Of a stretch of DNA of 64,000 nt, positions 14,963-38,361 are shown piece by piece (within the stretch, counting starts at the first letter, position 1; each line of letters begins with the position of its first letter). The DNA is from Lineolata rhizophorae (taxonomy: Eukaryota; Ascomycota; Dothideomycetes; Lineolatales; Lineolataceae). The notes beneath the pieces were generated by a model. It was not told the DNA's origin and searched no databases. It was given only the letters and a program-made list of their open reading frames with translations. Location: assembly GCA_010093515.1 (NCBI GenBank), contig MU001685.1, positions 475,851 to 539,850 on the forward strand. Direction: 5' to 3'. The position numbers and the translations under genes were made by a program.

Positions 14963-17900
14963 GTCCTAGTGATGCCTGTAAAAGGCGAAGGATGGGTGGG
15001 CAACGACGTCTATCGTCTGAAATAGGGGTGTGGCTGAATTACCATCGCTTAGGAACTCAGGGGCTGTGGTTCCACAGACGGCTCCAAAAAAAAGCCACGT
15101 CGGAGTTACCTTACAATCCTGCGATCTGAAGGTGCAAACCGTGTACAACATCCTCAATGAAATAAAAATACAGCTCCTGAAAGATCCTTATATCGTGATT
15201 AATATTCGGTATAGTCTCCGCAAGAATGATAAATGATCGGTATGCTGGAGTCCTGTAGGTATTTTACCGGGAAAGGAATGTCCACGTGACTAAAATTACA
15301 CGTGACCTTCGGGTGCTGCTATACTGCTGACTTCCCTGCATTGACCGCTCGTGGAAATGGGCAGTTATACATGGGCTTCTCTGACGCCGATGTCTGTGAA
15401 ATAACTTGTGGTAGCGTTAGTCTGACTCCTTATCTGGTGTATAATGAAGTCCGTTCTAGTTCTAGCACATTGCAGTGCAAATGGCCAAGGACGCTTCGTA
15501 GAGCCTTAGAAGCGTTTCAACTTCTGTTGCTGCAATAATATTAACTAATCTCCTGCTGTGCCAAATAACACTGTCTATTGAATCTAACAGTTTTAAGTCT
15601 TAGCTAGGGCACGCTGAGTTCCTTAGCAAGAGACAGAAAGCAGAGTATGCTAATAGCGAAACCCGAGCTTCTCTACAGCCACGCTGCCATTCGTCTCTCT
15701 GCCCCCGGACCAACGGTGTGTATCGCGGCTCCACTGCAATTTCCCGTCATCTATGACAGCAGCCAGGTGAAAGTGGGAACTCAACGACAGCTTGTTCTAC
15801 TCGACCATAGCATATAGATAGGGTGAGCCAGTCTTGCTGTGGTTAGATACCATTTTCTTTGGCTAGGTAGAAAAGGCTAAAAATTAAGAGCAAGTTTCAC
15901 TTATAAGCAAGATAGTCAACAAATCTGTAAGCGTAGCCATTATCTTCTTCCCAGGCTTATTTTTGATTGCTGGCCAAGTTAGGCCGGTGATATGCGTATA
16001 TGAGGTGCAACAACTGACGTTAAGATCCTTTTTGGGTAAAAACGAGCTCAAAATTATTCGATTCTTTAGCAGGGCATGGCTTCCTCGACCTCTGGCTCTC
16101 TAAGAAACTATTCTTGACTAGCTGAGTCTACCTTGGTATTCCGCCAGTCTAATTTCGTCGACCTAAAACGATGAATCGCCGCTCATTGAAGGTCACATTA
16201 CGAGATAGCTATAAGCAAACGGTGGTTGGCTCCTCCGAACACTTAATCGAGTCAGGGAGGTATACCGCTAAATTGCCACTCGGAATCTCGACTTCGATCC
16301 TCATAAGAACGTAGAAAGAAGTTACACATTTAAATTTTAGGCCAGTACGTTCCGATGATTTATTAGAAAGTTCTCGGTTCTTGATTTGTGGAGTCCACCT
16401 CGATATAATGCTTCCTACTTTAGTACACGCCATAGCTCAAAAGCTCTTTTGGGGCTTTACAGTTGCTCCTAAATTTAAGTTGCAAATCATCTGCTAATCT
16501 CCCAAAATCTGTGGCTTGGCGTTATCCCTCTGGTTCAGGCTACCAAACATGTCACAACACCCAATAATCAGCAGGACTATTTTATCAAAGGGAGCAAGGA
16601 AGATTTTAGACCAGTTTGCTCAAATAGAAAAAAACTTCTTGAAGATCCTAAATGCCATAGGTACATTGATATCAACAGCAACCCTTTTTTTTGTTTTTAA
16701 TGGCAGATATTTCTTGTCAATGCTGCTGCAGGTTGCAGAAACCTGCAGACTGCCTCACAGGCCTTAAAAGCTTAATAGGAATCAACAAGAGATAATTTAA
16801 CGCTGCTAGAAGGCCAAATTGGCAAGCAGCTACGGAGCTGTTGTTTCTTCTAAACAGTTTGATTCTATCAATTCCATGGCGGCGTAGATAAAGATTTGGA
16901 CTGCTGTGTTTTGAAGAAAATGACATGATGTTCCTAGATTGACAAGCTAAAGCTTAAGATTCGCATCATCCTCTTCTTTACCAAGAACTGGGCGCACTCA
17001 CCCCCCAATTAATGGGTTAGGCAGTTAATTCCAAGATAAAACATCAGGACATAGGAAACTATCACTGGCCGGATTTAACCATATACATTGCTTTCATTTG
17101 AATACAATGAAGAAAGCAACTAGGCTTATTTGGCAACTAATATGTGATTTGGACTATTGCGTGACTGGCCATGGCAAGTTGGGGAAGAAACTGATATTTA
17201 GATCTAGGTGTCTGAGATTCATCCCGTATCGATTGGAGTTGTCAAATAATAGGTAAAATGTTCATCAAATACCCCAAGAACCCGGCTTTACACATGAACT
17301 AAATAGTAGAAATAGATATAGTGAACTAACCGAGTTGTTGTTTCCTAATTGAAAAAAAGCCTATCCTGAAAGCAAGTGCTTGTCTATAGCACGGGGTTCT
17401 ACTCTAAATATACTCTTGCTAATTATATGATATAACGGCTAGTAAGCTTAGACTTAAAGTTGCCTATTATTTTTGGTCCCGGCGTTATAGAGCATCGGAT
17501 TTTGGGTGAAGAGAAATGTCACTAATTCTGTTTAGGTTGGTAACGTGAGAACTTTTATTCTAGCCGAAAGGGATTTCCGATTTGGTGTACATGTCTTTCA
17601 TCGTCTTTGAACATGACTAAAATGTGACAAAACTACCCTACAGACCTAATTAGTGCTAATGGCATGAAAGTGAGCAACAAGATGCTAGGGATCGAGAAGG
17701 GAGAGGTTGGGGAAGTATCTATTTGGAGGGCTTTTGAAGGGTTTGCTTCTGTGAACTAGATATTCTATGCTTCTATTACTCGACATCATGAGATAGTGAG
17801 GCAATGTAGAAGCTAGCTCAGTATAAAGCAATTCTTAATGGCTGCGGCTGGTACATTATATGAATGCTCATCTAGATTACTTCAGAGGCGAGTAACTTGA

Positions 17901-18610
17901 TATTTATGCGATATTAACGATTCATCAGTTTCGCTGTATTGTGTGGTAAAGAGAGTAGTACTTTAACATTTACTTAGCATAGGAGTCTATTATCTTCTAA
18001 ACTAGGCAAATCATAAATATTAGTGACAAGATAACCCTTTGTGGGTCTATTCTATTTATCAATAAGACACAAAAGGAGGCTGCACTAGGACGATATCTTA
18101 AAAAGGGAAGAGAACTCTCGATTACAATATTATTGCAAAGTGCTTGGCCCAGAGCCTTACCAGACTAATTGATAATAGATGCCCTACATAATCTTTCCTA
18201 AAGCTTTCCGGCATCCGTCTGTACTATTCCATGTTCCAATCGATTTTCATATTAATCCTAAGATATGCCTAACACAAACTAAGAAGGTTCTTAAGTCAGA
18301 TCTCCCATGGTTCCAAATATTGCATACCTTCAGATGGTAAGTCCAGTGTCTGTACCTAGCTTATCGGCTTCAAAGCAGCTAAATCAGGATTTCTTAAAAG
18401 CTTCAAGGCTCCAACAACTATGGAGAAGACAGCGGAGTCAACGGCTGACTCTTCGCCTATAGTCATTGTGGCTTCGCGCGAAGGGCCATTAATTTCAGCG
18501 ACTTGGCCAAGTGTTGTCTTGACAGAGGGCTTTGCACTTTTCAAAGCTGCTTGTGGAGACCCGCCAGCAATTCAGCTAGCGCACTCAAGCATCGCAATCC
18601 GTCCCACTCT
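14963..18610. other. AT-rich, TA-rich gene-free block
   Basis: About 3.6 kb with low GC, abundant TA dinucleotides and only short open frames, in sharp contrast to flanking genes. No protein family, terminal repeats or target-site duplications were recognised. The composition fits repeat DNA eroded by repeat-induced point mutation, a known fungal process, but the original element cannot be named from what I see. Confidence 0.5.
16726..16748. repeat. Perfect 9-bp inverted repeat with 5-nt loop
   Basis: CTGCAGGTT at 16726-16734 and AACCTGCAG at 16740-16748 are exact reverse complements separated by GCAGA. It sits in the AT-rich block and is the only GC-rich hairpin I noticed there. It has no U tract following it. 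Confidence 0.6.
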
Positions 18611-19637: not shown

Positions 19638-22600
19638 ATGACCACCCAGGACCCGCGCAACAGCAGCAGGACCCGCGGGCAGCAGCCGCCCATTCCCAAC
19701 TCCACCAGCAGCAGCGGGTCGTCGCTTGCGCCCTCAGCGGCGGCCACGGCCTCGGCCAGGACCGCGGCCGGCCTCCCACCCATCTCCTCCCAGGTCCGGT
19801 TTTCCGAGACAGGCGCGACAGCGGGGACGGCGGGGGTCAGCAGCTCCAGTACCAACAGCAATAGCGGCGCCGCCACGCCGCGGACGGCGACCTCCGCATC
19901 ACCAACCACGACGACGGCACCGGCAGCGGCAGTGCCCCCGATGGCCGCGGACTGGAGGTCCGACGCTGCGACGGCGGCCTTTATTCGACGGACGCTGTGC
20001 GCGCATCACGGCGGTCTGGACAAGGGCCGCAGCACGCCTCGCCCACTGGAGGAGCTGCTCCCGCCATTGACGAGCTCCAACGACGTCGATCTGCAATTGT
20101 ACGCCATTATCGCGGTGGTGGTACGCGAGTTTGTGCTGTCGTGGTACGGCAAGATTACGACGGACCATGTCTTCGTAGACTCGGTCGTGCAGGTTATTGC
20201 ACACTGCACGCGCGCATTAGAGCAGCGGTTGCGCAATGTTGATATGGAGGCGCTTCTGTTGGACGAGATTCCTGCGCTCTTCGACGCGCATATCACCGGT
20301 GAGTTTGCTTCTTTCGTTCGGAACTTTGTTCTGTGCTAGGAGAGGGCGCCTATGTTGGTGCTGAGTTGTGCCTGTGGACCCTTCCTTCTGAGTCTGAGTA
20401 AAAAAGTAGTTTAAAACGATCCTACACGATAGCGTATATGCCATACAATCCCGGCTTCGTCCGGCGGTTGGTCAGCGACGACCTCACTAATATCTGCCCT
20501 AGCATATCGCGTCGCGCACCGGCCCATTCACGCCCCGCCGCTGACATCGTCTCCACGCCAAATATACCACATGCTCCATCCCCACCCAGCGCTGTCGCCC
20601 GTTCCAGAAGTGGATGATCCGGAGGCCGAGGCGGCGCAACGTGAAAACGAGGCGGCGTGGTGCCAGTTGCTGGTCCAAGGCGCTTTGGCCGTCCTACTGC
20701 CCACCGAGGATCTCGAAAATGGGTGTCTGCGCACGCTCGTTGGTGAGATCTTTGCCGAAATGGTACTCCGAAACGGCGTTGGCGGCCGCGCGTGCGAGGG
20801 TTGGCTGCTGTGGGAAGGTATCATCAAGATTGTCGATGTGTTGCGGCCCTCAAGTGGGCCCGATACAGATGTTGGGAGCGAGGCCAAGGAGACGGCCGGG
20901 TCAGAGCAATCGAGGAAGGTTGCCAGTCGTCTTGAGCAATACGGGCTCGTGTCGTCATCGAAATCATCGTCCGCATCCGCGCCGTCGCTGTCGTCGGCAA
21001 CAGGGCCATTAGAGGTTCCGGGGCGGGCATCGAGTCGTTGGGAGGGCAAGTCCGTTTCCTCCGTGTTCTGGCTAATTGTCCAGTATGCATTTTGGACATT
21101 TGCAGCAGCGCGCTATTTGGTGGTTACAATCGCAACATCCTCCTCGCTTCCTGCGCGGTCGAAATTGCCATTGACGATGATAGCTGGAATGGAGGGGTCG
21201 AGTGGTGTCTCACAGACGAACGAGAAGGGCCAGCTGCGTCAGGCCGGGTCTGGCGGCCAGACTGCGACTGCGAGGCCTACGTCGGGGCTTGCGCGGCCCG
21301 TGCTCAGTATGAGCGTGTGGGGGGCTGTTGGGCGGATTGTTGAGCTCGACGCTCGTATGCCATGGCTAGCTGGGCTGCTTGGGCTGCTCCGTCACGGATG
21401 TGTGGCCGGCCCACGACGGGTAGGTGACACAGATGGCGTATTGGACAGGTGGGTACATGCTCCTATTTTTGCAGTCTCTTTTCTCCGCATCATTCCCTTG
21501 CGTCCTTCCGTTTTGTGTTTCCTTGGAGTGCGCTCCGTCAAGGGCTCCTTCGGGGCGTGTCCGCGAGGGGGATCGGGCCCGCCTGGAGGAGGTCCGTGCC
21601 GGCCCTGGAAGGCGTGGCGCTTTTAGTCCCGCATGAGCTGGCGGTCACTTGACTTAGGGCGGAGAGGGAGCACCGGCCCGCGCGGTTTCACTGGCCCGGC
21701 CCTCTTATCGGCGTGCATGGTGGCGCCCACCGGCCCCTGGGCACGACTCCACTCGCCAGCCCGCCCGCCCGCGGCACGCGCTGACTGGCTGTCGCCGCCA
21801 CCACCAATCAAATCACCACCGTCTCGTTGCCCGCAATCATGACGATGCCCGCTTTCCGCCGGCCATCCCGTCCGATCTCACACGTCGTCTCGCCTTCCGC
21901 TAGCCTTGTTATGCCCGTCCTCGTGCCGGCCCTTGGAGCTCGAGCCACCGACGATTGACGGAATGCGCGCAATGCAACGCCGCGAGGAAGCCCAAAACTC
22001 TAAATGAAGCGTCACGATCCTTCATCTACGAAACGGCACGGCCTGATTTTCGCTTGCAAATCGCCCGGCGAGCCGTTGGACTAGTCGGCCCAGGGGGGGG
22101 TTCCTCCCGGGATTCGGCAGCCTCGCCATTGCCATTGGCTGGGCCAGTACTTTTTACTCTTTGGGCGATTTGCAAAAGGTGTCCGCCGCCTATCTGTTTC
22201 TGGCCCTTCATCCTGGTCTTCCTCTCATCGGCCCCGTATAGGCGCCGGGCTGATCAGTGCTCCACCTTGCATGGGCTCGGGACTGGCCGCGCTCGCATGC
22301 GCCAGCCCCGGTCGACCAGGGTCTGCAGCGCCCCCTGTCAGCCCAGAGCTGACCAGTCGCGGCAACCCGGCTCGGCCACGGCGCCTCGAGCTCCCCGTTC
22401 CGATGAGAAGGGCTAAGAGCAGTGCAACTTCCAAGGGCCGATGTGTTTGTGTGTGTGTGTGGGTGCGTGTGCGCACGCAAGCGATATCGCACATGGGCCC
22501 TTTTTGACCTTAACCCCGCAACGGCAGCCGCAGGCCTAGTTCCCGGCCCGCCCCTCGTCCACGTCAACTGACCGCTCTATACTGCAGCGTTCTGCAGCGG

Positions 22601-25600
22601 TGATGCATCAACGGCTCGGATAGACACGCGTTCGCAGAGCGGGCGACGAACGAGAGACGGGCGCACTCCTCCCCTTCGGCCCTTGATGCTGGCCAACAGC
22701 CGCTTCCTCGTCCGCTGCCCTCTCGCCAAGCTCCAGTCGAACGGTCCGGCTGGCGCGAGCGCGCCCTTTTGCGAAAACGATACCCCGACCGTTCGAAAAG
22801 ACAGGCGGCGCGTGCGCGCACTACTGCTTGTTTCACCCGTCCGGGCATACACGCTCCCAAGCCGCGGTGCCCGTAGACTGGCGACCAGCGCCGCCACACC
22901 TGTCGCCGCTTTTGGCGCTTGCCTCGAAAGGTCGCGACCGCTGCCGTGCTGCCACACCCCCGGGCCCCGTGCAAAATTTCTCGTCGATGCTATTGGGTCA
23001 TGCCGAATCAATTTGCACATAAGCGCGCCTGTGCTGGGAAAGAAGAACCGAGCCCTTTTCTTTTCCTTGCGCGCCTTTTAGTGCTTCCGTTCTCCGATTC
23101 CTCGTCCTTAGGCGATTCTGTTTAAGATTTTGTCTTACGCGGGAAGGATGGGAGGGGTGAAGAGGGGCATGGATTTGCAAGAGTGGGGAGACGGACGAAA
23201 TGGCATGGTCGTCAGTTTGCTGTCGATCGCACACAATGGCCAGACTTTTCCGACAGTCTGGTTGACATTGCAATGATGCGACTTGCTTCACGATGCGACC
23301 AAAATACAGCCACCCCCGGAGAAATGCAGCGTAGAAGAGAATCAGCTTTTTACGGGGTTCGTTGGCTGCTGGCGGCGCTTTCTGCTGCGTCTAGAGGGCT
23401 TGCTTGCCGGGCTGAGGGCTTCGCAACCATTTCGCTGGGAATATGCCATCCCGGCATCTTTATCGGGCTTTTTGTCACGATCGAAGAAAGACTCAACCAG
23501 AAGGCACGTTGAGTTGACGTCCTGGTTCCTGCGGGCTCGCAGGAAAGCTGATGGCTGCGTTGCATGCTTAGCTCCCCACCCATTTGCACTTGCTCAGTCC
23601 ACCCAAAAGCTCCCCTGCAATCCGGAAGCAAGCCCCCAAATGCCCCCCTTCCCCCCGCGTCTCCACTTCAGATTGGCGCCGCAGATGTGAACAAACTCCG
23701 CGGAGCGCATGGGCGCCTGTCTGCTTGTCTGCCTGCCTGCCTGCCTGCTTTTGATGTGCGGGCATTGAGATTGCCAGGCCAGGCCAGGGTAGGCCAGGGC
23801 CGAGGGTAGCGGCGGCGGATGGGGACTAGGTACCTTGTTTGCCTGGTCGTAGCCTCGTGCCTTGCAAGCAGAGCCTTGGGGAGGGTGGAGGAGGAGGGGC
23901 TTGACCTTCTCGTTTCGGCCCAACCCGCGAGTCCTTCCCCCTGCCAAACAGTCTCGGGACGAATTTGATACGGTACGAACCAATGGGGTACCCTGTATTG
24001 TTATGTTTCAATACCGTTTTTTTCTCTCGGCTCTCCTTGGGACCCCGCCCTCGTCAGTCTCTGTTTACAAGTGTCTCACTTTCGACTATCTACCCGGGCT
24101 GTACCCCAGATAGTCGCGACGCACTGAGCAATTGAGCACTGAGCACCGAGAGACGCCCCACCCCGACTACTGGACCGCACGACATTCGAGAAGCCTGGTC
24201 CGTCAATCATTCGAGCCACACAAGGCAATTGTCCGGTCCAAAACGGACAGGACCGTGTGTCACTACTTCCACGATCGTCCGGCTGCGAGACACGTTGATT
24301 TCTCTCGTCTATTGGTTGTGGCGGTCCAGAATTGCACATATGTAGGGCGACTGTTTTCGCTCGGTCGGAAACCGCACCGCTCTCTCTCCTCGCTGCCGAC
24401 GCCGTTATTTTTTACCGCCGACGCCGACGCTGCCGCCGCCGCCGCAACCTAAACGGGCTGCCGCCGCCGCTGCACGCCCGTATGCCCATCATATTCTCGT
24501 CTCGCTTCGGCCGGCGCCTCGATTTGGCCCCTTCCCTTGCCTTCCCTTCCTTCCCGCGCCCGGGTTTAGCCAGCTAGCCTTAATTACTAGCTAGGTAGCC
24601 CTAGTGCGGGGACGTGGGAATGGCTGGGGGAAGGATCTGCCTCGAGGAACGAATGCCAGTGTGGCATTCTAAGTATATACAGGGCTAAGGGAGCGGCGCT
24701 TGGCGAGAAGAAAAATGGCGAGGCGTGGCTTGCTATGCTTAAGTCGTCCACTCAAGCCCCGGCTCCTCCGACGATCGGTGCCGAGACCTGTACCTGCGCG
24801 GGTAACCCAACTTAGAAAGATAGGTGGTGGGACTTTCTTTTTCACGGTCTTCCATTCGCCTTGTCTGCGCGCGGGTTTCGTCCTTTTGCTGCCCAACTGC
24901 GGCGGGCGATCAGTTGCAGGGCAGGGTAGGATAGGCAAGGCAAGTAGAGCGGATGCGTTTCGAGCGGCCCGTTTTTGAAACACAATCTTGGCTTTTCCGC
25001 AACGAGCTTCTTGCCTCGGTTGCTAAGCTTACTTGCTAAGCTTGATTGTCCGCTCCGTGGGGGTTGGGCGGTTAGGGTAGACACTTTGCCTGCCCGCCTT
25101 GGTCGAGTCCTTTTCTGGGTTTTCTTGTCCTGTCCATCTACCTCACACTCCATAGTGTGGTGGTGATATACGACCGGGTTATGGTCCGGGCTGGTGGGGG
25201 ACTGGACATACGTAAACCCAAGATTAGGCGGGCCGCGACCGGACACTGATCTTGTGCTAATTTGCCCGCGCGGCCCGCCCGCTAGTCTGCCGTTCTGGTC
25301 TGATCGGCCAAAGCGACGCACGACACGGCCATCGGCTGTAGCGTGCCCCTCAAGTTCTTCGCGACAAGGCAGTGCGGGAAGGTCAAAATACGTTTGAAGT
25401 AGCGCGAGCGCGGGAACGGCGCTCGCATATGGCGTTTGCATTGCGGCCCAAGCATGTCAGGTCAAGCCACAATAGCGCACGCAGTTCGGCATGGTGGAGG
25501 GAGGTGGTGGAGCTAACGGAGAACGGGGCCGTGGCAGGCCTCACGTGGACCCGGACGTACGTTGGGTTAAGCGCCCGGCTCTCTTTGCGTCTCTCTTCCT

Positions 25601-27423
25601 TGCACAAGCAGAGGAAAAATGTGTTTCACGACCCACGCTTTTTCTCTTTAATTCGCGATTTGATGCCCGAAGAGGGGGGAAAGAAGGGGGAGGGAGGAGA
25701 GGGAGGGGAGGACGCGGAAACGCTTGGCAGGCGGACTCCTTTGGCAATTTCATGTCGGCACCGACAGACTGGTTGCGAACGAGCCGCGAAACTCTCTTCG
25801 ACGCCTTCGGCCCTTACGAAGTACGAAGAAAGCCCTCTCGCAACCGTCAAATGTCCGACGGGCGACGCACCGCGAGTAATAGTCTCCGGGCATGGACGAG
25901 TGACCTTGCAAATCCTGGACTGGTGCTTGCTCTGGGTCTATTTTGGCCCTGATGCTGCTACCCGAACCTCGGGCGAAGGACTGACTTGAGGCGGGCGGGG
26001 GGGAGGGGGGGTGTTGACAAGCCGCGGCCGTATGCGGACTCGAACTGGACCAGGAACTGGACCGGACTGGACTCGAGGGACACGACGCTACCGCCACTGG
26101 CACGCGGCAGTCGTCACTCCACTCGGCATCTACAAACTCAAAGCCAGTGTTCCCAATCTATAGGGGACCGGATGACAGATTTACGCGTTGCACAAGAGAC
26201 AAGCCTATTGTGTCCAGATCCCAATAGACCGTCCATTTCATCTCTTTTTTGGGCGTGAAAGAGACTCCCAACCCATGGCTGTCCTAGGAAGAGACTCAGA
26301 CAGACCAGCGAACCTCTTCCGCATCGGCACAATCCTGCAGGCTCCCTTTCTCCATTCACATCTGCTCGAAGCGCCGGGCCGAAGCCAAGACCCGATGGAT
26401 GGATGGACCCCTTGCAGGGACCACCACAGACGCCATGCACACCAAACCCATCCACTCACTCACCCACCACCCCATGGATCTTCGTCGCCGCCCCCCCCCC
26501 CAGCCCTACCGCCGCGCCACCACCCCTTCAGGCGAAAATCTGCAGGCCCGCTCCTTCCATTTTTACTGGTTTCTGCATTGCGCATCGCATCGCATCGCCG
26601 ACGCAAGATGTAGCTTCCCGGCGGCCGTCACAATGCCTCCGTCTTCATCATCCGCCTCATTAGGGGAGAGGGCTTGCCTCACTCGGATACTCTTCTCCCG
26701 TCATCGAAGGGCCCTTGTCCTTGATCCACAATTTTTTTTGCGTCGCCATCGTCAATCCCGAATCGCTTACCCCTAACACGTACTCTCCGTCTCTTCCATG
26801 TCTCTCCTCCAAGCCATCTGCCCGCCCCATGCACCTACCCGTACATTCATTTGTACCACCCACCGTCGCATATACCGTCCATCACCTGACGTTATTCTCT
26901 TTTGCTGTTATGTTGCCTTGTTCACCAAGGCGGCTGACTCGGATCCTAACGCCACGGTCGTCTTGACAGGTTCCTCTCCCACCAGATACACACGCACCTC
27001 CTGTCCGCCGCGCGCCTGCCGCCCTTGCTCCGCGCCCTCCGCTCCGCCCTCGCACCGGGTAACGCCTTCGCGCCGCCCCGAGCCGCGCCGCCCGAGCCCG
27101 AACAGGCCGCCTTGAGGCGCCGCGCTGCCGAGCGCATTGTCGAGGCGTTGCCGCCGCATGTCGTGCGGCTGATCAAGCCCACGCCGCGTGCGGCTAGTCG
27201 TCCGGGTAGTTCTCGTGGTAAGGTGCATTATGACGGCAGTGACGAGAAGGCCGTCAGGGAGGCGGCGGTGAACGAGGTGCATGAGGTGCTGGGCGTCTTA
27301 GCGGACCAATACTTGAATCGGCATGTTGTGTTTGGCATCGTGGAGCTGCTCGTCGTAAGGTTGATGCCAGAGATGGCTGAGCGTGGGGTGGAGGCGCTTA
27401 TGGCGGAGAGGTTGGGGACCTAA
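19638..27423 (+). CDS. PXA-domain membrane protein (686 aa) with a 5.5-kb intron
   Basis: Exons 19638-20298, 20503-21448 and 26970-27423; 2061 coding bases. Intron 1 is 204 bp (GTGAGT...CCTAG). Intron 2 is 5521 bp: donor GTGGGT at 21449, a CTAAC branch near 26946, acceptor TTGACAG. The phase-2 junction rebuilds an Arg codon and continues the family sequence as LDR then FLSHQIHTHLL, as expected for the conserved PXA region. PXA (PX-associated) domains occur in sorting-nexin-like and ER/endosomal membrane proteins. Seen here: residues 1-110 disordered; IRRTLCAHHGGLD, AIIAVVVREFVLSWYGKI and FVDSVVQVIAHCTRAL in exon 1; IYHMLHPHPALSPV and ENGCLRTLVGEIFAEMVLRN in exon 2, followed by a hydrophobic segment (FWLIVQYAFWTFAAARYLVV). 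Exon 3 ends with a helix like the family C terminus (HVVFGIVELLVVRLMPEMAE). The start at 19638 is the first in-frame ATG. Confidence 0.85.
21449..26969 (+). other. Giant intron of the PXA gene (5521 bp), no recognisable nested gene
   Basis: The segment is GC-rich, with many open frames of 60-205 codons on both strands and none resembling a known family. The 5' end is T-rich. The last ~550 bp is CT-rich on the + strand and resembles a fungal promoter/leader rather than an ordinary intron. The splice ends are normal (GTGGGT, CTAAC, CAG). It is more than ten times longer than any other intron in the window, so it may contain inserted or translocated intergenic DNA. Confidence 0.75.
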
Positions 27424-30400
27424 TAGATAGTAGTAGTTCAATTTACCTGAATAGAGAGCGGCTTATTGAGTGCCTAAGTTTAAGATGAGTCGGGTGAGAG
27501 TCGGTTAGCTGCTTGGGGAATTGGCTTGATTGTTGCACTGGGCAGGTAGGCTGCGGACGTAAGGAGAGTCGCACTGGGTCCGTACGTAGCAGATAGGAAG
27601 GTATTTGTGGTAGGAGTAAGTGGCCGGGCATCTCACGCATACAGAGCCAGTCGCTACACACGAGTTTTGAATGGAGAAGAAGGATGGCCAGGTAAAATGA
27701 GAGCAGTAGAAAAAAAAATAAAGGTTGTCGAAGCAAGCTCCGGTATTGGTTGGCGGCCTCCTTATCTCTCTTCGGAGGCCACCAACCAGCAGCGGAGACG
27801 TTGCACCTTCCCATTAATTCAATTTCTTGGAACTTTCCGCTGAGATCTTGCCGAAGCGCTATTGTGTGAGAGAAACGCCTGCCGTAGTAGTAGTAGTAGT
27901 AGTAGTGGTAGTAGTAGCCCTTATGCATGCAGAGCGCACAATAGATGTCGAAACTGAAGGAGACCCAGGACGGAGGACTCGCTCGCTCGTTCGCTCGCCA
28001 TTCGCTCGCCCCGACGGAAATGGGGTAGGAAGGAAGAAGGGAAGGAAATCTGGCAAGGAAAAGAAGCTGAGATATAAAGAGACAAGGAGACCGTAACGAT
28101 GATTCCAGATGCTATTGATGGAAGATGACGAGAGAGAGAAAAAAGAAAGAATAGAAAAACAACCCTTGCGCCACCTTGGATTCCTCCTTCCCTTCAGTCT
28201 CCCGTCTTCCTCTTCCCCTTATTTCCCAGCCCCATCCACGTTCGGCCTCTCCCGAGTCCGTCCATCAGACGGCAGCTGGGCCACCACCACCATCGTCAGC
28301 ACACCTGAACTCCATTCGTCCATCCTGGGCTCAACCCACGCCACGCCACCCACCGCATGCCATCTGGCCTCGCCACTCACTCACTCACCCACCCACTCAC
28401 CACCTTGCCGCCCGCCCGCAAACCCGCACGCAGCACACTCCTCCCCCCCGCCTCGATCTCTTCGACACCCGCCGTCCGCTCGACGCCGCGCGGCCCGCTT
28501 CGCCGCCCCGGCCCCGGCCCCCCCGCCGCCCCCACGACGCCAGGCGGGCCGGCTCGCTTCGCGGCGCGCAATCAGCTCGGCGGCGCGGCGACGCCGAGCA
28601 GCGAGGCGGGGAAGGACGGGTTTCTCTCGGCGGCGGCGGCGGCGAGTTGCGGAGGCGGCGCGGCTGAGGGGGCGCGGGGCGCGGGGCGCGGGGCGATAAG
28701 GCGCGGTTGCGGATGTGTGGATGCGTGCGGCACAGCAGATGTGCGAGGAGAGGATGGGCGGGCGGGCGAGCGGGCGGGCTGGGACGATGGCGGTCGGGCG
28801 TGCGTACGGTTGTCGCTGGTGGGGTCCGGCAGGGGGGGACTGGTGTCGCGTAGGCAGGCGGGATGGCTGGCTGGATGGGTCGTTCGTTCGTCGTTCGGGG
28901 TGGTAGAGCAGACGGACGGATGGACGAAGCAGAGGCTGCGGCGAAGGCTGCGCTAGGTGCGGCGCTGGGATGATCGCCGTCGCCCCCACGATGCTTTCGA
29001 TGTGCCGGATTGATTAGACTCCTAGGAGAGCACCCTGGCACGGGCCGAGCGAGGAAAACGCGAAAGAGAAGAGACGGAGAGAGCAGAAGACGACAGGACG
29101 AAAGAGGCGCACTACAGAGGGCCCGCGCGAGCGGATTGCAACCAGTCTTTTTTAAGTTTCTGACGAATGATCCCCGGGAAGGGAAGGGAAGAGAGCTGCT
29201 GGGTATTTCCAGACGCTCCAACCCCCCCCCAAAACCACCTCCCTGGAGTACAAACAAAACATGCGAGTAGTAGTAGTAAGGATAATGGAATAAAGGCCGT
29301 CATAAAAGATGATACTTGCTGCCGATAAAAATAAATAACTCTGAATTTGGTCCCCGCTCGCAAAGGTCCTCCAGGCAGGCGGCGCGGAACCGTGCCGCCT
29401 ACCCTCCTAGCCCTCTTCACTCACCCAACCCTCGCCTCCCTCCTCCCTACACCGAAGATCAACACAAAGAGCCTCCTCTAGAACGATCTGAATGACTGAT
29501 GGCATCGCATGATCTTGTTGGGAGGCCCTCACGCCTCATCTCTCCCCTTCTTGTTGGCTGGGAGCCTCGACGGGAGGAGTAGAGGCCTCTCAGCCCCTCC
29601 TCACACGTGCCATCTCCCAAAGCCTCCAACCGCAGCCGCAAACATCGAACAAGCTAGCGACCGACAAAACGTCATCGTGCACGTTTTCGATCCGCAACCG
29701 CCGACGCCGCTGCGATGATGTTGTATGCGCCTGTGGTGGTCGTGCGCGTTTCGTCCCGCCCTGGCCTCGCTTCGAACTATAGGCCGACAAGCGTTCGCCC
29801 CTGCACAGCGAAAGGCGCCCGGGATATTTCGTCGATCGTGCGCCCGTCGAGGAAGAACGGCGGGGGGAGGGGAGCGGTAGCCATGGCTAGAAGGTCGAAA
29901 CGAGCCTGCGGGGGAGAGGGATGGGGTGAGGGCTGGGTCATTTGCCGTGCTGTGCCGCAGACGCGCAGGCAGCGAGGCGCCCGGCTCTAGACACGCGCTT
30001 CTTCCACGTCCGAGGTAGATAACGATGTCCCGACTATAGCTGTGCGATATTAAGGAACATTTCCGATTCCAGCTATGCAGGCGCACTTTGAGGGTTGTCG
30101 GTGTAAGAGAGGGCGGGTGGAGAGCGAGAGAGAGGCGGAGCAGAGAGATAAGGAACCGAGGCTAGCAATGAACAGCAACAGCATCATCAAAAAAAAAAAA
30201 AAATAGGAAATACAAGGAAATAAGCAGAACAAAACCGAAATCGACGATAGCCTCCCAGAGGATTGGATATATGTGTGCAAGTTCGAGCGATACAACAGAG
30301 TTGCGACAAAATAAAAAAGAGTAGAAAAGGGAAAAAAAAAAAAAAGAAGTGGGCATATCTCAGCTCGCGAGAGCGATCAACACCACGTATGGAAAGGGTC

Positions 30401-30739
30401 TTAATAAAGAGAGGAGTAAGCAAGCACACGAGCCAGAAGGAGAAAATCGTATGAAGAGAAGTAAAAGAAGAACACACAGATTCAAAGGCGCTTCGAGCCC
30501 GCCCCGGCTACGTGGTGGTTCCCGGTTCCCTTCCCAAAGATGTGCCCAACCAGCCAACCAACACAATCGATCAAGCAGTCCACCGCCCATTTTCCCACTT
30601 TCCCCGTGATACCAACCAAAAAAAAAAAAAAAGGGGGGGGTCAATACAACAGAGCAAGCACACAGAGGAAAGGGGAGGGAGGTGCACCAGAGCAGCAAAA
30701 AAAGAAGAAAAAAGCAAGCAAAAAGAGGAGAAACAGTCC
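27424..30739. other. Gene-free GC-rich spacer with A-tracts at its right end
   Basis: No supported gene. It contains a GTA microsatellite (27884-27917), C-rich and CGG-rich low-complexity DNA around 28.2-28.7 kb giving long spurious frames on both strands, and an A-rich segment (30.15-30.75 kb) with several A11-A13 runs. The latter is the 3' flank of the minus-strand CENP-B-like gene, where the transcript would be U-rich. Confidence 0.5.
27884..27917 (+). repeat. GTA trinucleotide microsatellite
   Basis: About eleven GTA units with one GTG interruption, in the spacer downstream of the PXA gene. Not in a supported coding region. Confidence 0.9.
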
Positions 30740-33151
30740 CTACTCAGGAATACTCCCCATCTCCATAGCGGGCGTCCCCTCCCCACTCCTGACCCCCCCA
30801 TCCCCACCACCACCACCACCGCCGCCGCCGGCGCCGCCGCCGCTACCGCCGTGCCCGACGCTCCCGCTCCGCTTGATCTTCAGCTTCTCCATCAGCTTCC
30901 CGATCGTCACGTACTCCTGCGGCTCGACGAAGCCGGACGGCTGGTGCTGGAAGAAGGCCATGACGAGCTCGAGGGCGCGGCGGGCGTCCTCGCGCGACGG
31001 CGAGCCCGGCGACGCCGACTCGGGGCTCGGCAGCATCGCCGTCGCCGTCGCCAGCGAGATCGACGTCGTCGACCCCGCCGCGCCCGGCGGCAGCGGCGGC
31101 GGCTGCATCGCGCTCGCCAACGGGCTCAGGCCGCGCTGGTGCGGGTGCGGGTGCTGGTGCTGGTGCTGCGGGCGCGACCGCACCCCGTTGAGCGTCTCCT
31201 CGACGCCCGACATGGGCGGCGGCACCTCCGAGATGGGCGAGTCGAGCGCCGTGCTGCTCAGGTACTTGGGCGTCAGGGGCTCGGAGCTCTGGGGCGGCGA
31301 GATGTACGACGGATCGATGCCGAGGGCGGGGAACGTCTGGCTTCGGGGCCGGTGGAAGTTGCTGCCGGCGTTGGTGTTGTTCGGCTGGCCTCGGCTCTGC
31401 TGCTGCTGCTGTTGTTGATGCTGCTGCTGCTGCTGCTGCTGCTGTTGCTGCTGTTGCGACGACGACGATGACGACGCTGGCAATAAGGGGTTAGTAGTGG
31501 TTCCGCAGGCGGAGTCCGGCGTGAAGAAGGGCGAGGTCGGGCTCGTCGGGCCGGCCGAGAAGGAACTGGGCGCTGTGTCGGTGAAGACGCTTGATAGGGA
31601 CGTGTTGCTCTGCGAGTGGAACGGGCCGTGGTGGTTGTTGTTGTTGTTGTGATGCTGGTGAGCGCCAGGCTGCTGATGCCCGCCGCCCCCGCCCGAAAAG
31701 TCGATGTAGCTGTCCGGGCTCTCGGGCTTAACGCCCTCGTCGCTCTTGGACGCCGTCATCGTCATCGGCGACGGCGACGTCACCCCTCTCCTCTCGTCCG
31801 GAGACGTCGGCGAGATGCCGTTGGGCGTCTGCGTGTTGGACGGCGGGTTTGACATGGCGCCCCCGCCGCCGCCGCCGCCACCCTCGGAGTCGTCGGCCGC
31901 CAGCGAGTTCTTGCGCGATTTCGAGCCCATGAGGTTGTTCTTTTGCTTGAACTTCTCGAGCCAATTGCCGCTGTTCAGCTTGAGGTGGCACTCCGAGTTG
32001 CCCACGGACGTGGCGAAGAAGTGCGCCTTTTCCCGAATCATCGAGTCCGACAGCGTCAGGCCTTGTCGCTGGTGGTTCCGCGCCCAATTGGAAAGTGCTC
32101 GCTCAATGTCTGGGAACTTGCCTTTGGAGCGCTTGATGGGCGACCGGCTGCCGTCGTCTTGATACAGATACTTTTCCTTCTGCCGCAAGACCTTCGAAAC
32201 AGTACTAAATGGAGAAAGAATTGTCAAGTCAACCCCCGTAATGGTATCTTTTTTTTTGTTTTTCGATCTACTTCGGATTCAACCAAAACAATCAGATAAT
32301 AGGACCAATTTACCTTCTCTCAACACCGAACATTGCTATAATTAAACTCTTCGTTAGTCTAAGTCCGTTCTATAAAAGCAGCTCCAGAAGACTCAATTGG
32401 AAAAGTGAAATCGAGTCCGTAAAAGTGAAAACCCCCCACACCCCCCCCCCAAAAAAAACAAAGGCACCAACCACTCAAACTCAGAAACTCAAAAAAAAAA
32501 AAAAACTAAAAAAAACTCACCTCCAATCTCCGTCTGCTTCGTGTGCGGATGCTCCTCGTGATACAGGCACATGCGCCGACGATCGGCGTCCGTCAGCGTC
32601 TTGCGGGGCGTCGACGAGGACCGCGTCGAGGAGGCCGAGATGGGCGTCGCGGCCGTCGTCGACACGGCCGACTGCGGCGTCGTCGCCACCGGCATCGACG
32701 CCGCCGCCGCCGCCGAGGGATACATGGGCGGCACGTACGTCGACTGGCTCGTCAGCATGCTGGGCCACTGCGGCATGATGAGCGGCTGGAGCTGCTGGTG
32801 CGTCGTGCGCGGCGGCGGCGGCGGCGGATGCATCGCGTACGGGTGCTGCTGGTGCTGGTGATGGTGATGGTCCATGGACATGGCGCTGCCGCCGCCTCCG
32901 CCGTTGCCGTTCCCGCCGTTCCCGCCGCCGCCGCCGCCGCCGAAGGAGAAGCCGCCATACTCGTGCACGGGCGACTGGTGGTGCGAGTGCGGGTGGTTGG
33001 GGAAGCCGCCGCCGGGCTGGGTGCCCTCGATAGAGCCCCAATGGCTCGTCGGGTCGTGCAGCAAGGGCGAGTCGTGCGGGTGGTGCTGGTGGTGGCCGTG
33101 ATGCTGGTGATGCTGCTGGTGGTGGTCGTGATCCATTCCCATCTGGCTCAT
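30740..33151 (-). CDS. CENP-B-type HTH DNA-binding protein (705 aa)
   Basis: Exons on the minus strand: 33151-32521, 32335-32314 (22 nt) and 32204-30740; introns 185 bp and 109 bp. All phases agree and give 705 aa. Residues ~185-235 form a CENP-B/Psq-type helix-turn-helix: LTDADRRRMCLYHEEHPHTK, then QTEIGAMFGVERSTVSKVLR, assembled across the micro-exon. A second CENP-B/Tc5-type HTH follows (FPDIERALSNWARNHQRQG, then SGNWLEKFKQKNNL). The family descends from pogo/Tc transposases, but no DDE nuclease domain follows, so this is a host DNA-binding protein, probably a nuclear regulator. The N terminus is His/Gly-rich, and the C-terminal 400 residues are Ser/Pro-rich with poly-Gly and poly-Gln tracts (poly-Gln at about 31400-31460) and a final Gly-rich segment. 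DNA target unknown. Confidence 0.88.
31399..31459 (-). repeat. CAG/CTG tract encoding poly-Gln in the CENP-B-like gene
   Basis: Plus-strand CTG/TTG repeats encode two Gln runs broken by one His on the minus strand. Length variation between strains would be expected. Confidence 0.85.
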
Positions 33152-36100
33152 GGTTGGCTGGTTGGTTGGTTGGGCCCTGGAGCAGATAAACAAGAAGCAG
33201 TTACTCCGTGGCTTTTCAATCGTGGAGAGAAGTGAGTGGGGAAAGAGTCAAGATCGAAACGATGGTCAGGGCTCGCTTCCCTCTCTCTCTCCCTCTCCGG
33301 TTCCCGCTTGGCTGTGAGGCTCAGTTGGCGGTTCTTTTTTCCCTTTTTTGATGCAGTTGCTTCCGCTTGCTTGTTGCTAGCTTCCTGTTGGCGGTTGCGG
33401 TGATGATGCTGCTGCCGCCGCTGCTGCTCTGGGCGGAGAAGGTGGTGGGGCGAATTGGGAGGGGGGGTGTGGGTGAGTGGTTGGGGGGAAACGGGGTCCG
33501 TGGGCAGCAGGAGCAGTTTTCGGTGCTAAGTTCACTCGGACGACTGGCGGCGGCGGCGGCGAACTCGAGCTGGCTCAGCGACAGGCTAGACGCAGACTCG
33601 GGGCAGCTGCAGCAGCAACGCCCGGGACTGGAAGGCGGTCGTCGTCGGTCGTCAGAGTGGGAGAGGCCGTTGTTGGCGCGCGTGCATGCATGAGCGGGCT
33701 TCCGGGTGGTTGCTGTGGGTGGTGGGAAAGGGCAGGCGGGCCACACAAGGCTTGGGGCTCCTCCGGGTTTAGGTAGGGCAGAGCAAGGCCGGCAGGCAGG
33801 GAGGGGAGGGTCCACGGAAGGGTACGGGCTGGCGCGGTAAGCGGGAGTGGTTGGGTGCAGCGCGGTGGGTGCGACGTTGAAACGTGGGGCCTCGGGCGCG
33901 GGCAGGGCGATTGCAGGGCGGGGGACCCTTTTTCTTCCTTTTTGCGTTCCCGGAGCAAGAGAGAGAGAGATCGACAGCAAAGCGCGAGCAGTGGCGGCGG
34001 GCGTATGCGGCGAGGGCGGAGGTTCTTTTAGAGCGGGCAGAGAGCGCCGTCCTTGGGGATGGCGGGCAGGGACGCACGCACCGAGGCCGGCCGGAGCTCA
34101 GTCGTCTCTCGCCCTCTCTGGCGGCGGCGGGTTCCCGGGGGAGGGCGGCAGCGGCGCGCGGGCGCGGGACGAGAGAGACCCATGGGCCACGGCCCCTGGT
34201 AGGTTTTGTTTCGAGGCCGGGCGGCCGGCGGCGCGAGCGGGCGTGAGCCGTGAGGACGAGAGGGAGCGTCGAGCAAGCCATCGCCGTTACTGTACAATAC
34301 GCCAGGAGGCGGGATCCGTACGGGCAGCGGAGGTAAGGTTAGCGCGTACGGTTACGGGCGCGGCGCGGCGCGGGCCACGGGGGGGAACCGCGGACGGCTG
34401 GGGCTGGGGGCCCGGCGGCCGGGACAGGGACCGGGGCCGCATGGAAGCGACGCTCCACCGCCAGGGCCTGCTCTTGCGGGCGGCGCCCAGAGCGTTTGGC
34501 GGCAGGAGGGCGCGGCTTGGGGCAGCAGCCGGGCTAGGTGCAGGCGGCCGCCGTCCCGGCCGCAGCTACGTCGCCGGCGGGCGAATGGGCGGGCCCGCCG
34601 TCGCCTGCGAGATGGGCCATCGGCCGGCTAAAGCGGGCGCCATTGCTGCTGCCACGGCCCCACGGCTCGCCGACGGGCGGGCGGCCGCAGCAATTCACTC
34701 GGGCCCGGCGCCGCCGCCGCGGTGCGCGCGCAACGCCCGGCCGTCCCGGGCAGCCAGCAAGCGGGCGTGGCAGCAGCGCAGGGCCGGAGCCTGCCGCGGC
34801 GAAGCAGAAGCAGGAAAAAAGAGGCTGACTGTCAACCGGCCGGTGAGGAGACAGCAGCGGCGCCGGCGCCGGCGGTGGTGGTGGTGGCGGCGGCCGCAGC
34901 CCCGGGCGCGCGCGCGAAGCGCAAACGGAACCTTTGACAGGCCCAACCCGCGTCGTCCAACCTACGTAGGGCCCCCAAAACGCCGCAGGTACGCCAAACA
35001 GCAGCTCAGGGCGGCGGGGGGTTTTGCGGAGAGGCGAGCGGCGCTAGGAGCGTCCGAGGAGTGGAGCGCCGCCCGTTGTTTCGCTGCTCCTGCCGCCCGC
35101 TGCTGCGCGCATGCCGCCGCGCCGCTCGCTGCACAGGCACGCGGAGGCGCGCTCGGCCGGCCCCGGCTGGCTTGTCGGCTGGGGTACCGTCGGCCGCAGG
35201 CGGCGGGAGGCCTCGCGGGCGCCAGCCCGGGGTGGCCCATCTCGCCCCGTGAGGCGCCGGCCCACGAGTCCCCTGGCCCGCTGGCCGAGCCCGCCTGCGC
35301 CGTCCGTTAGACGCTCTGGGGACCCCCCTCCGGCCCACGAGGCTGCCGGCCTAGGTAGCTCGCGCTCGCGCTCAGCGAGCAGCGCCTTTCGTTCGCGCGT
35401 AGCTCCTGGGATATGCCCAGCGCTTCGCCAGCCCACTCCCGTCGCCCGCCCGCCCGCTCTCGTCCCGGCCTGGCCTGGCCTGGCCCGACCTGGGCTTGCC
35501 CCGCCCGCTTGTTGCTGCCCGTCACCCGCCGCTGCCTCGCGCGGCCCGCTGCGCTCCTGGCCCGCGACGCCCGCGAGATGACGCCGTCAATCGATCAACA
35601 ACCGTCGTAGCCGGAGCGCGCACGCGGACCCACGGCCGAGCGAGGCGCCCCGCTGCCCCGTGCCCGCGAGGGCCGACGACGGGCGGGAGCGCCCCCGGCC
35701 GAGGGTCCCTGCCCGCTGCGCGCGCCCATCCCTCCCTCCCCTTGCCTTGGCCCTCCCCCCACCGGCCGCAATGCACGCCCTCCCACGCTTCTTGATTTGG
35801 CCTTGGCCCGAATTCTGGCCAGTCCGGCCAATCAGCGCGCCCGCCGAGCAAAAAGGATCGTCGCATTTGTGATTTTTCTCGACGCGGCCAACCGCATGCG
35901 TCGCCCGTCCCCAAAACGTCCGGCGAGCGGAGTCCGCACCGGTACATGCCGGCCCGCCCGCCAGAAATAAAAAAAAATCAGGCCGCATCCATGTTTTGAA
36001 GTTTTAGTTTTAGTGTTAGTTTTTTTTTTTATCCGTTGGAAAAGGGTTAGGACGGGGTGCGCCGGCCCCCGTTTCGATGGCCGGCGCGACAAGCCGCAAT

Positions 36101-36546
36101 CGCCCGCTCCGCCAATGGCCCGCCGTGGCCGGCGATTGCCGGGTGCCCGTCTGTTCCCCATGATCGCCGGCCGAGGCCTCGCACTAGCAGGTCGCGAAGC
36201 TTGGTGCCTTCTCCCTGCGGGTCTGGTCAATCGTCTTGCTGCAATCTGCCCGCTGCGGCTGGCCGTGAGCCACAAGTGGGGACGCCGGACTCGATTTCCA
36301 CAATCCAACCACGGTAACATGCTGATGTTCATGCGACATAATTGGGCACGCCGGGCTCGCACCTTGGCCTTGGCCGATCCGTCCGCGCCTTGCCATTTGA
36401 AATGACTATTCCATCATTTTCATGCTGTGATACGAGAGTCGAGACACCTTCCATGTCTTGCCGTCCTCTTATTTCGACGCCACGAGATCCCCCCAGCCCG
36501 GCTCCCGACCTTCGCCCATCGTGAATGGTCTCGTCGCCGCCGTGCC
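33152..36546. other. CpG-rich gene-free region upstream of the CENP-B-like gene
   Basis: About 3.4 kb of very GC-rich, CpG-dense DNA. It allows a 487-codon frame on the + strand and several 100-170-codon frames on the minus strand, all of low-complexity Arg/Ala/Gly/Pro composition without a known domain. It is the 5' side of the CENP-B-like gene and the 3' side of the DRG1 gene. I see no RNA gene or repeat family in it. Confidence 0.5.
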
Positions 36547-38361
36547 TCATCGCTTGATGATGGTGACTAGTCATGCTTAGCTTCCAAATATACTCTTGCC
36601 CTGGCCTCGTGACCCCAGATTCTATACTTACCCACGTCCTCGTCCGCCAGCTCGTGCGACAGGCCTACTCGCTGCGGTTGGTGCTTGACCGATTTGCCGT
36701 AGACAATAGCTTGTTTGAACTGCTCCACAATGGTCCGGTGGATCGCGTTGCACTGCCCAATCGTCAGCCCCCCGCCGCCATGCCAATATACCGTACCCAG
36801 CCATGTACCCTCAACAGGAGTCACATACGAAGTCCTCGACTGTGCACGCCGTCGATCGCAGCACCACTGGCGCCGTGTAGTCGGGCATTTTACCCTTCGG
36901 CTTGGTGTAGACCCGCCGGAGGTTCAGCTTATCCCACATTTGATCCAGCAGCTCGTCGATGTTCCACCCATGCTCGGAGCTAATGGGGCACGCGTTAGGG
37001 ATCCGGTACAGTAAATCCAATTCCTCGATCGAGATGGAATCAATCTTGTTCAGCGCGTAGATTACCGGGATGTAGCTTCGGCTCTTCGCTTCGAGGATGT
37101 CAATCAGGTCATCCACCGTCGCGTCGCAACGAATCGCAATGTCCGCATTCGCTATCCTGTACTCGGACATGACCGCTTTGACTTCCTAATCCCGAGTTAG
37201 CTTTCCTTTTGTCCTCTCAAACATTCCGACTCTTCCTCAACCTCGGGAGGGCTTCACCCAATCCATACATCGTGATCGATATGCGTCAAGGGTACCGTGC
37301 TCGTAATGTTAATACCACCCTTGTCCTTCTTCTTGAAATTAATATTCGGCGGGCTCTTATTGATTCGGATCCCGAAACCTTCGAGTTCTGCCTCGATGAC
37401 GCGCTTGTCGGTAAGGGGCTTGTTCACGTCCAGCACGATAAAAATCAGATGACACGTTTTAGCGACGGCGATAACCTGGCGACCACGACCTTTGCCGTCC
37501 TTGGCCCCCTGGATGATACCTGGAAGGTCGAGCATCTGAATCTTGGCACCGTTGTAGATCACTTGGCCGGGAACCGTTGTGAGCTGCGAGAAAGACATGT
37601 CAGATACGAATCGCATCCCTAGTACATCTAGGAAGGATTCCAGCCGTATTCAACGAACCGTAGTAAACTCATATGCAGCAGCTGCCTCAAAGATTAGCCA
37701 TATATCGCCTCACGCCAGAACAAACTGGATTTGCATACCTTCGGAGTGTTGTCCAGTGAGCCTGCTCATAAGCGTGCTCTTTCCGACGGACGGGAAGCCA
37801 ATGAAGCCGCTGTCGTGTTCAAACCACTGGTAAGCATCGTCCAGGTCCAGCCCGGTTCGGTTTTGGCCTTTTTGCTGATGCAGAATTCCGCTAGAAAAAA
37901 AAAAGAACTTACACGCTGGCAACGCCCGTCCTTGCAACGTCGAAGCCGACTTTTCCCACGGAGTTAATTTACCGCACACACAGGCAAAAGTGTAATAGGC
38001 AGAGCACATACCACCACCTCCACCGCCGCTCGACTGGGGAGTGAGAAGCTCCCGCTTCAGCTTCGCAAGCTTGGCTTTGAGCTGCCCTATGGGGGAAAGT
38101 CAGGCCTCCAAAACGCATGGATAACCGCTATCGGGTGGAGAGGAGTACCGAGATGGAACGACGTCGCCTTGTTCTTCTGAGTCCGGGCCATCTATTGGCG
38201 GTCAGCGCGAAGGAAGTCGTGCTATCGTGCGGGTTCCTGCAAGATACGTACTTCGGCCTCGATCTCTTTAATCTGCAGCCGCATGAATTGGTGGTCAGCA
38301 TGGTCGAGCGAAAGGCCAGAAAGAGAGCGGTGTGGAGCACCTTGTCGACCGTGGTCGCCAT
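36547..38361 (-). CDS. rbg1: Developmentally regulated GTP-binding protein 1 (DRG1/Rbg1), 367 aa, 11 exons
   Basis: DRG1/Rbg1 is a cytoplasmic GTPase that binds translating ribosomes with its DFRP/Tma46 partner. Minus-strand exons: 38361-38341, 38272-38252, 38191-38149, 38086-38012, 37949-37913, 37809-37739, 37681-37659, 37583-37269, 37185-36829, 36752-36632 and 36566-36547. Ten introns of 57-103 bp all have GT...AG ends, and phases sum to exactly 367 codons, the same length as human DRG1. Motifs: N-terminal helix [18 protein letters not shown]-loop GFPSVGKST (residues 71-79); Switch [22 protein letters not shown]4 motif NKID; TGS domain starting [16 protein letters not shown] terminus DEDVVTIIKR. 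The G5 region reads ISSEHGW where many homologues have ISAHHRW. The gene is divergent from cysteine dioxygenase, with start codons 708 bp apart. Four exons are only 20-23 nt long. Confidence 0.95.

What the first reader, a model, noticed from the sequence alone, without database searches (positions are those of the whole stretch)
21449..26969. 5.5-kb intron inside a conserved PXA-domain gene
Seen: exon 2 ends AG at 21448 and exon 3 begins at 26970. Donor, CTAAC branch, acceptor and phase are all correct, and the join restores an uninterrupted PXA-family sequence (LDR to FLSHQIHTHLL). Known: filamentous-fungal introns are normally 50-200 bp; the next longest here is 474 bp. Inference: either a normal short intron received several kilobases of DNA, or a rearrangement moved an intergenic region into it while splicing survived. 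No transposon ends were recognised.
Basis: partly seen in the sequence, partly recalled or inferred. Interest (0 to 1): 0.75.

Follow-up and report, generated by a model that had tools for sequence, protein, structure and literature searches.

The report
Giant intron splits fungal lipid-transfer-like gene
A gene of the fungus Lineolata rhizophorae that probably makes a lipid-carrying protein is interrupted by a 5,521-base stretch that looks like one very long intron sitting at an old, shared intron position; it matters mainly because databases often cut this gene at that spot.

Summary
Exons 19638-20298, 20503-21448 and 26970-27423 join into a 686-aa protein without stops, and 102 of 114 NCBI-labelled homologs cross the 536|537 junction unbroken. 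The 5,521-base segment is gap-free and single-copy, without significant Pfam or Rfam matches, tRNA, RIP or transposon signal. The genome matches Lineolata rhizophorae (Dothideomycetes); its database entry holds exon 3 as part of a separate 251-aa gene (P0121).

New here: the intron position is old. Of 120 listed homologs of at most 546 aa, 115 end exactly at ..LDR/LDK, as the stop hidden in a phase-2 AG|GTRA donor predicts. All 25 NCBI-labelled models in that length-limited list break there. Pyrenophora and Boeremia models carry 85- and 71-residue inserts there, so the intron may be long elsewhere too. It separates the PXA domain from a probable Nexin_C/PXC part; such halves are predicted to form one lipid-binding fold (PMC8864675).

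Best reading: one real, very long intron at a conserved site, extreme in this genome (57 sampled gaps: median 69, largest 303). How it grew is unresolved. A split gene with an internal promoter is not excluded. Splicing was not observed. Multi-kb introns are already annotated in Dothideomycetes, so interest is moderate.

The parts
19638..20298 (+). exon 1 (CDS start ATG 19638)
   Evidence: open join with exons 2 and 3, 686 aa; PXA Pfam hit over aa 147-330 of the joined protein, E 3.1e-52
20299..20502 (+). intron 1, 204 nt, donor GTGAGT
20503..21448 (+). exon 2, ends ..TDGVLDR in phase 2
   Evidence: 115 of 120 homologs in the list end at the corresponding residue
21449..26969 (+). intron 2, 5,521 nt, donor GTGGGT, acceptor ACAG
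   Evidence: one match (itself) in the genome; six frames with stops read as X: one Pfam match only, CFC at E 0.41 below its cut-off; no Rfam match at gathering score
26946..26950 (+). CTAAC branch-point box, branch A 26949, 20 nt from the 3' end of the intron
26970..27423 (+). exon 3, probable Nexin_C/PXC-like C-terminal part, stop TAA 27421-27423
   Evidence: Nexin_C matches in 17 of 46 homologs at E<=1, beginning near the junction in those looked at; no such match in this protein itself
26451..27050 (+). stretch holding the most pyrimidine-rich 500-nt windows on the + strand of the window (its last 81 nt are exon 3); possible internal promoter or 5' UTR of a separate exon-3 transcript (inference)
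26399..26716 (+). intron stretch used as 5' exon by the public split model BDY21DRAFT_422699 (P0121), joined to 26986; donor GTCCTT (read from the sequence)

Best explanation
21449-26969 is one spliceosomal intron at a position shared at least among Dothideomycetes and some other Pezizomycotina, and in Lineolata rhizophorae it has reached 5.5 kb. Shown: intact donor, branch box, acceptor and phase; a contiguous conserved protein across the join; a conserved intron position (from protein ends, not DNA); single-copy DNA inside without a recognised gene. Inferred: the pre-mRNA is transcribed through all 5.5 kb and at least some of it is spliced 21448|26970, giving an Nvj3/Pxa1-like PXA-PXC protein whose two halves form one lipid-binding fold. 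Unspliced RNA would give a product that ends 58 residues after LDR and lacks the PXC half. The length most likely built up in an intron that was already longer than usual, by gain of host-type single-copy DNA rather than by a recognisable transposon.
For: Open 686-aa join. 102 of 114 NCBI-labelled homologs cross the junction unbroken. 23 of 28 exon-3 columns that are at least 90% conserved are kept, so exon 3 is still constrained. Conserved donor position and phase: 115 of 120 listed homologs end at LDR/LDK; P0233 reads K-Y-V as AA|GTAYGT would, and this gene reads R-W-V from AG|GTGGGT. No second copy of this gene type seen: PXA hits fall at three loci, and the other two also have a clear Nexin_C hit nearby, which this locus lacks. 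Relatives' models carry 85- and 71-residue inserts exactly here. No N in the gene, one match along all 7.8 kb. Chaetomium thermophilum is also reported to have three PXA-PXC proteins, one of them with these two domains only (PMC8864675, section 13).
Against: No RNA evidence. The public annotation holds exon 3 in a separate gene (P0121), and no public model of the first half appeared. The donor GTGGGT is not a common one (recalled). Exon 3 is somewhat more diverged than expected: 7th lowest median identity of 111 and 8th lowest exon3/PXA ratio, while PXA ranks 45th. A pyrimidine-rich stretch just before exon 3 looks like a gene start. An intron about 80 times the sampled median should be hard to recognise by intron definition (recalled). 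Length in relatives rests on gene models, not DNA.
Confidence: 0.72

Rival explanations
1. Gene fission: exons 1-2 end in the segment, and exon 3 has its own promoter near 26.4-26.9 kb and makes a separate PXC-like protein, which may pair with the PXA half.
For: The public model P0121 is such a gene. The most pyrimidine-rich + strand windows of the 64 kb lie just upstream of exon 3, and by eye several other extreme windows lie at gene starts. One Kozak-like ATG at 26633 (whose printed coordinate is one too high); it is in the frame that P0121 uses. Mild excess divergence of exon 3. A Xylariaceae relative also has a C-terminal-only model (P0122).
Against: The acceptor, CTAAC box and phase that fit exon 2 are intact. 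TAA at 26947-26949 closes the exon-3 frame, so no ATG leads straight into it. The public model's donor GTCCTT is poor (recalled). Of 47 in-silico joins from ATGs at 24001-26940 to the true acceptor, 6 use a hexamer from my recalled list of donors, and none of the six donors lies within 1 kb of exon 3. The most pyrimidine-rich minus-strand window (30001-30500) lies past the 3' end of a minus-strand ORF, not at a gene start. P0122 may merely start at a Met inside exon 3.
Confidence: 0.15
2. A recent insertion or rearrangement placed about 5.4 kb into a normal intron of about 60 nt in the Lineolata lineage only. (A version of how the intron grew; it overlaps with the best explanation.)
For: The 57 sampled gaps of this genome imply introns of at most 303 nt. 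The Dothideomycete median is 57 bp (PMC7181583, passages).
Against: No second copy, transposon domains, clear terminal repeats or RIP signature; an old, decayed insertion is not excluded. Models from Pyrenophora teres and Boeremia exigua need at least 255 and 213 nt of DNA between the two exons.
Confidence: 0.3
3. Assembly artefact: unrelated sequence joined between the two halves.
For: The assembly does contain runs of N: 110 in the window and 11,755 in a 200-kb sample of the same contig.
Against: No N in or near the intron, intact splice signals at both edges, one match along the whole 7.8-kb gene. The latter two do not exclude a clean misjoin.
Confidence: 0.04

Closest known systems
Yeast Nvj3 / fission yeast Pxa1 (PXA-PXC-only lipid-transfer-like proteins)
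   Same: PXA domain plus a probable Nexin_C/PXC-like end; no PX or RGS match in this protein or its scanned homologs. PMC8864675 describes Nvj3 and Pxa1 in these terms (passages and section 13).
   Different: Here the two halves are separated by a 5.5-kb intron. Fold and lipid binding were not tested for this protein; a relative (P0001) is predicted all-helical.
Multi-kilobase annotated introns of Dothideomycetes
   Same: PMC7181583 gives longest introns of 1,356 to 42,135 bp in the other species it compares (passages only).
   Different: Those are genome-wide extremes without detail in the passages seen; this one is placed at a conserved position and near a domain boundary.
Stwintrons (spliceosomal twin introns)
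   Same: Fungal introns with another intron inside them (PMC6616335, search listing and start of abstract only).
   Different: No nested intron chain was found; apparent mini-introns were a GT microsatellite artefact.

Membership tests
Spliceosomal (GT-AG) intron | GT donor, CTRAY branch box, AG acceptor, frame kept | tested here: met
Spliceosomal (GT-AG) intron | spliced RNA across the junction | not testable with these tools
   no RNA data held
Spliceosomal (GT-AG) intron | same position and phase in relatives | tested here: met
   115 of 120 listed homologs end at the donor residue as a phase-2 AG|GTRA donor predicts; inference from proteins, not DNA
Nvj3/Pxa1-type PXA-PXC protein | PXA domain | tested here: met
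   PF02194 E 3.1e-52
Nvj3/Pxa1-type PXA-PXC protein | PXC/Nexin_C domain in the C-terminal part | tested here: inconclusive
   No Pfam hit in this protein at E<=0.001 and none at exon 3 in the genome search; 17 of 46 homologs match at E<=1, best 1.8e-4 at 22.3 bits against a cut-off of 22.3
Nvj3/Pxa1-type PXA-PXC protein | one interwoven PXA-PXC fold with a lipid pocket | tested here: inconclusive
   AlphaFold model of relative P0001 all-helical, mean pLDDT 79.2; no PDB match at E<=0.001; contacts between the halves were not examined
Transposon insertion | terminal repeats, other copies, transposase or RT domains | tested here: not met
   the longest inverted pair found is 29 nt at 72% and lies inside the intron, not at its ends
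Nested gene or RNA host intron | known protein domain or RNA family inside | tested here: not met
   Below threshold: Rfam MIR2950, 27.1 bits against 76, E 0.017 (a plant miRNA family as I recall, taken as chance), and Pfam CFC, E 0.41. An undescribed RNA or gene is not excluded

The most novel reading that the evidence does not exclude
The intron is a long-standing switch point. In many Pezizomycotina transcripts end or stay unspliced here, giving a PXA-only product whose stop codon lies in the donor itself; in Lineolata the gap has grown to hold an internal promoter, so the PXA and PXC halves of one lipid-transfer fold are made from separate transcription units and must reassemble.
Probability: 0.12. 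Interest if true: 0.7.

Novelty: new member of a known kind. Interest (0 to 1): 0.38.

Why it matters
It shows one intron position where fungal gene models repeatedly break, leaving a probable lipid-transfer protein as a PXA half with its C-terminal half lost or placed in another gene. If real and spliced, it is a simple test case for how a splicing system used to introns of about 60-70 nt handles one of 5.5 kb.

Tried and rejected
Transposon or repeat origin: one match in the genome, only short repeats, CpG o/e 0.99 and no RIP signature.

Nested gene: six frames with stops read as X gave one Pfam match, CFC at E 0.41; the two longest intron ORFs match only themselves in the genome. A home-made coding-potential score failed, because the known exons scored near zero, and is not used.

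Structured RNA: no Rfam match at gathering score, one sub-threshold match, MIR2950 E 0.017, taken as chance, no tRNA, no telomere repeats in the intron.

Chain of mini-introns: six pattern hits against 0.8 expected collapsed to one acceptor beside a GT microsatellite, P about 0.35.

Pairing of the intron ends: no stronger than random interior pairs.

Relatives' DNA: no PXA relatives in viral contigs or genome contigs, as expected, since neither collection is of fungi; metagenome scans were capped at 0 and not tried. The bacterial promoter and terminator scan is not informative for a fungus.

A first regular-expression count of direct joins was too strict (55 of 120) and was replaced. In one search the control junction, intron 1, was odd in 4 of 114: three lack residues just after it and one has low identity; none ends there and none has an insert of 6 or more. 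In one search, 10 of 120 homologs were dropped for lacking enough of exon 3. One of the 57 gaps is only 2 nt and the largest, 303, spans 190 missing profile positions; the 39 gaps with at most 10 missing or overlapping positions have median 67 and largest 224.

Paper searches. None named this gene's intron as a term; two searches found no paper. The listings seen do not show that it is unpublished. Three papers were opened: PMC8864675 (passages and section 13), PMC7181583 and PMC8476143 (passages only).

Full report
What is there. The gene runs 19638-27423 on the + strand with three coding exons; the join is 686 aa without a stop. Pfam finds PXA at aa 147-330. The 5,521-nt intron has donor GTGGGT, CTAAC at 26946-26950 with its A 20 nt from the end, and acceptor ACAG. 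It contains no N and matches only itself in the 30.97-Mb, 48-contig assembly (that search skips simple repeats).

Which organism. A search with exon 3 alone gave three proteins. P0121, Lineolata rhizophorae BDY21DRAFT_422699 (251 aa), is 100% identical over 97% of the query and lies on a contig of 850,132 bases, the length of the contig that holds the window. Its first 106 residues come from inside the intron (26399-26716), joined through a GTCCTT donor to 26986. The public annotation therefore holds the C-terminal half in a separate gene. No public model of the first half appeared in the searches that accept lengths of about 377-1200 aa and 172-547 aa; P0124 is only the window's own open frame.

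The junction is right. Of the 114 NCBI-labelled proteins among the best 120 homologs, 102 cross the 536|537 junction with fewer than 6 inserted residues. Twelve do not: eight end there (P0074, P0077, P0092, P0095, P0105, P0111, P0113, P0120) and four have inserts of 9, 42, 71 and 85 residues (P0048, P0044, P0067, P0082). At the control junction, intron 1, four were odd, none by ending or by an insert of 6 or more. Only 120 of 813 hits are listed, ranked by score, which disfavours truncated models.

The intron position is old. A search with aa 224-536, whose length limits favour short proteins, listed 120 of 629 hits; 115 of the 120 end exactly at ..LDR or ..LDK. In phase 2 the donors GTGAGT and GTAAGT turn AG|GTRA into Arg-stop, which explains this end. 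Single-exon ORF callers on metagenomes would stop there whatever the intron's length, so most of the 115 speak for position only. The 25 NCBI-labelled models in the list are more telling: 22 end exactly there (one of them marked partial) and three run into unrelated residues directly after it. The length limit selects truncated models, so 25 of 25 is not a rate among all models; it shows where short models break. The named species are mostly Dothideomycetes, with two Candelariales lichens and Botrytis (classes recalled). P0233 reads K-Y-V, as AA|GTAYGT would.

Is it long in relatives? The inserts in P0082 (Pyrenophora teres, 85 aa) and P0067 (Boeremia exigua, 71 aa) lie exactly at the junction and need at least 255 and 213 nt of DNA there, against a Dothideomycete median of 57 bp (PMC7181583, passages). 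Other models of the same two species, P0132 and P0105, end at LDR. This suggests, but does not show, a longer than usual intron in relatives. The same paper reports longest introns of 1,356-42,135 bp in its other species, so 5.5 kb is not unprecedented. In this genome, 57 gaps between adjacent Pfam pieces imply introns of median 69 and largest 303 nt; these are estimates, and in the 39 tightest gaps the largest is 224.

What the intron separates. 17 of 46 homologs have a weak Nexin_C match (best E 1.8e-4); in the seven of ten homologs that show it it begins near the junction. This protein itself has none, and the genome search found Nexin_C only at the two other PXA loci. PMC8864675 (abstract, passages and section 13) reports, from structure predictions, that PXA and PXC domains fold into one structure with a hydrophobic pocket, and that Nvj3 and Pxa1 lack the other domains of the family. 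The AlphaFold model of relative P0001 is all-helical with mean pLDDT 79.2, and the junction, after its residue 451, falls in helix 448-461 (position). No PDB match had E<=0.001. A protein cut at LDR would lack the whole exon-3 part.

Is exon 3 still functional? It keeps 23 of 28 strongly conserved columns, against 86 of 96 for aa 147-536. Its median identity to 110 full-length homologs is 0.43 (7th lowest of 111), while PXA ranks 45th. It is constrained, with a hint of relaxation.

What is inside the intron. No significant known domain, RNA family or repeat. Its GC, CpG and RIP indices are like those of the GC-rich non-coding stretches at 27500-30500 and 33300-41000. The pyrimidine-rich stretch before exon 3 is the most extreme on the + strand. 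By eye, from ORFs, several other extremes lie at gene starts (451 and 41901 on +; 33401 and 59951 on -), but others do not, among them 30001-30500, the most extreme on the - strand. It is a lead for an internal promoter, not a test.

Verdict. A real, extreme intron at a conserved site is the best reading (0.72). Recent insertion (0.3) is one version of how it grew and overlaps with the best reading. Fission (0.15) needs RNA data.

Noticed in passing
window 30740-33247: Minus-strand gene with a Tc5-type transposase DNA-binding domain (HTH_Tnp_Tc5, E 8.4e-15) and long Q/G/H-rich stretches, probably two exons.
   Followed up: partly
window 33300-41000: About 7.7 kb with no clear gene by long ORFs (a 489-aa ORF has no Pfam hit); multi-kilobase apparently non-coding stretches occur outside the intron too.
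   Followed up: no
window 6573-6682: A 110-base run of N inside a low-complexity part of an ORF with a Vac_ImportDeg domain: probably an assembly gap at a repeat.
   Followed up: no
window 15000-18500: AT-rich stretch (GC 0.41, CpG o/e 0.71) that differs from the rest of the window; possibly a decayed repeat.
   Followed up: no
P0122 and P0123: C-terminal-only models in Xylariaceae sp. AK1471 and a metagenome contig, starting at a Met just inside exon 3: the same gene may be split in the annotation there as well.
   Followed up: partly
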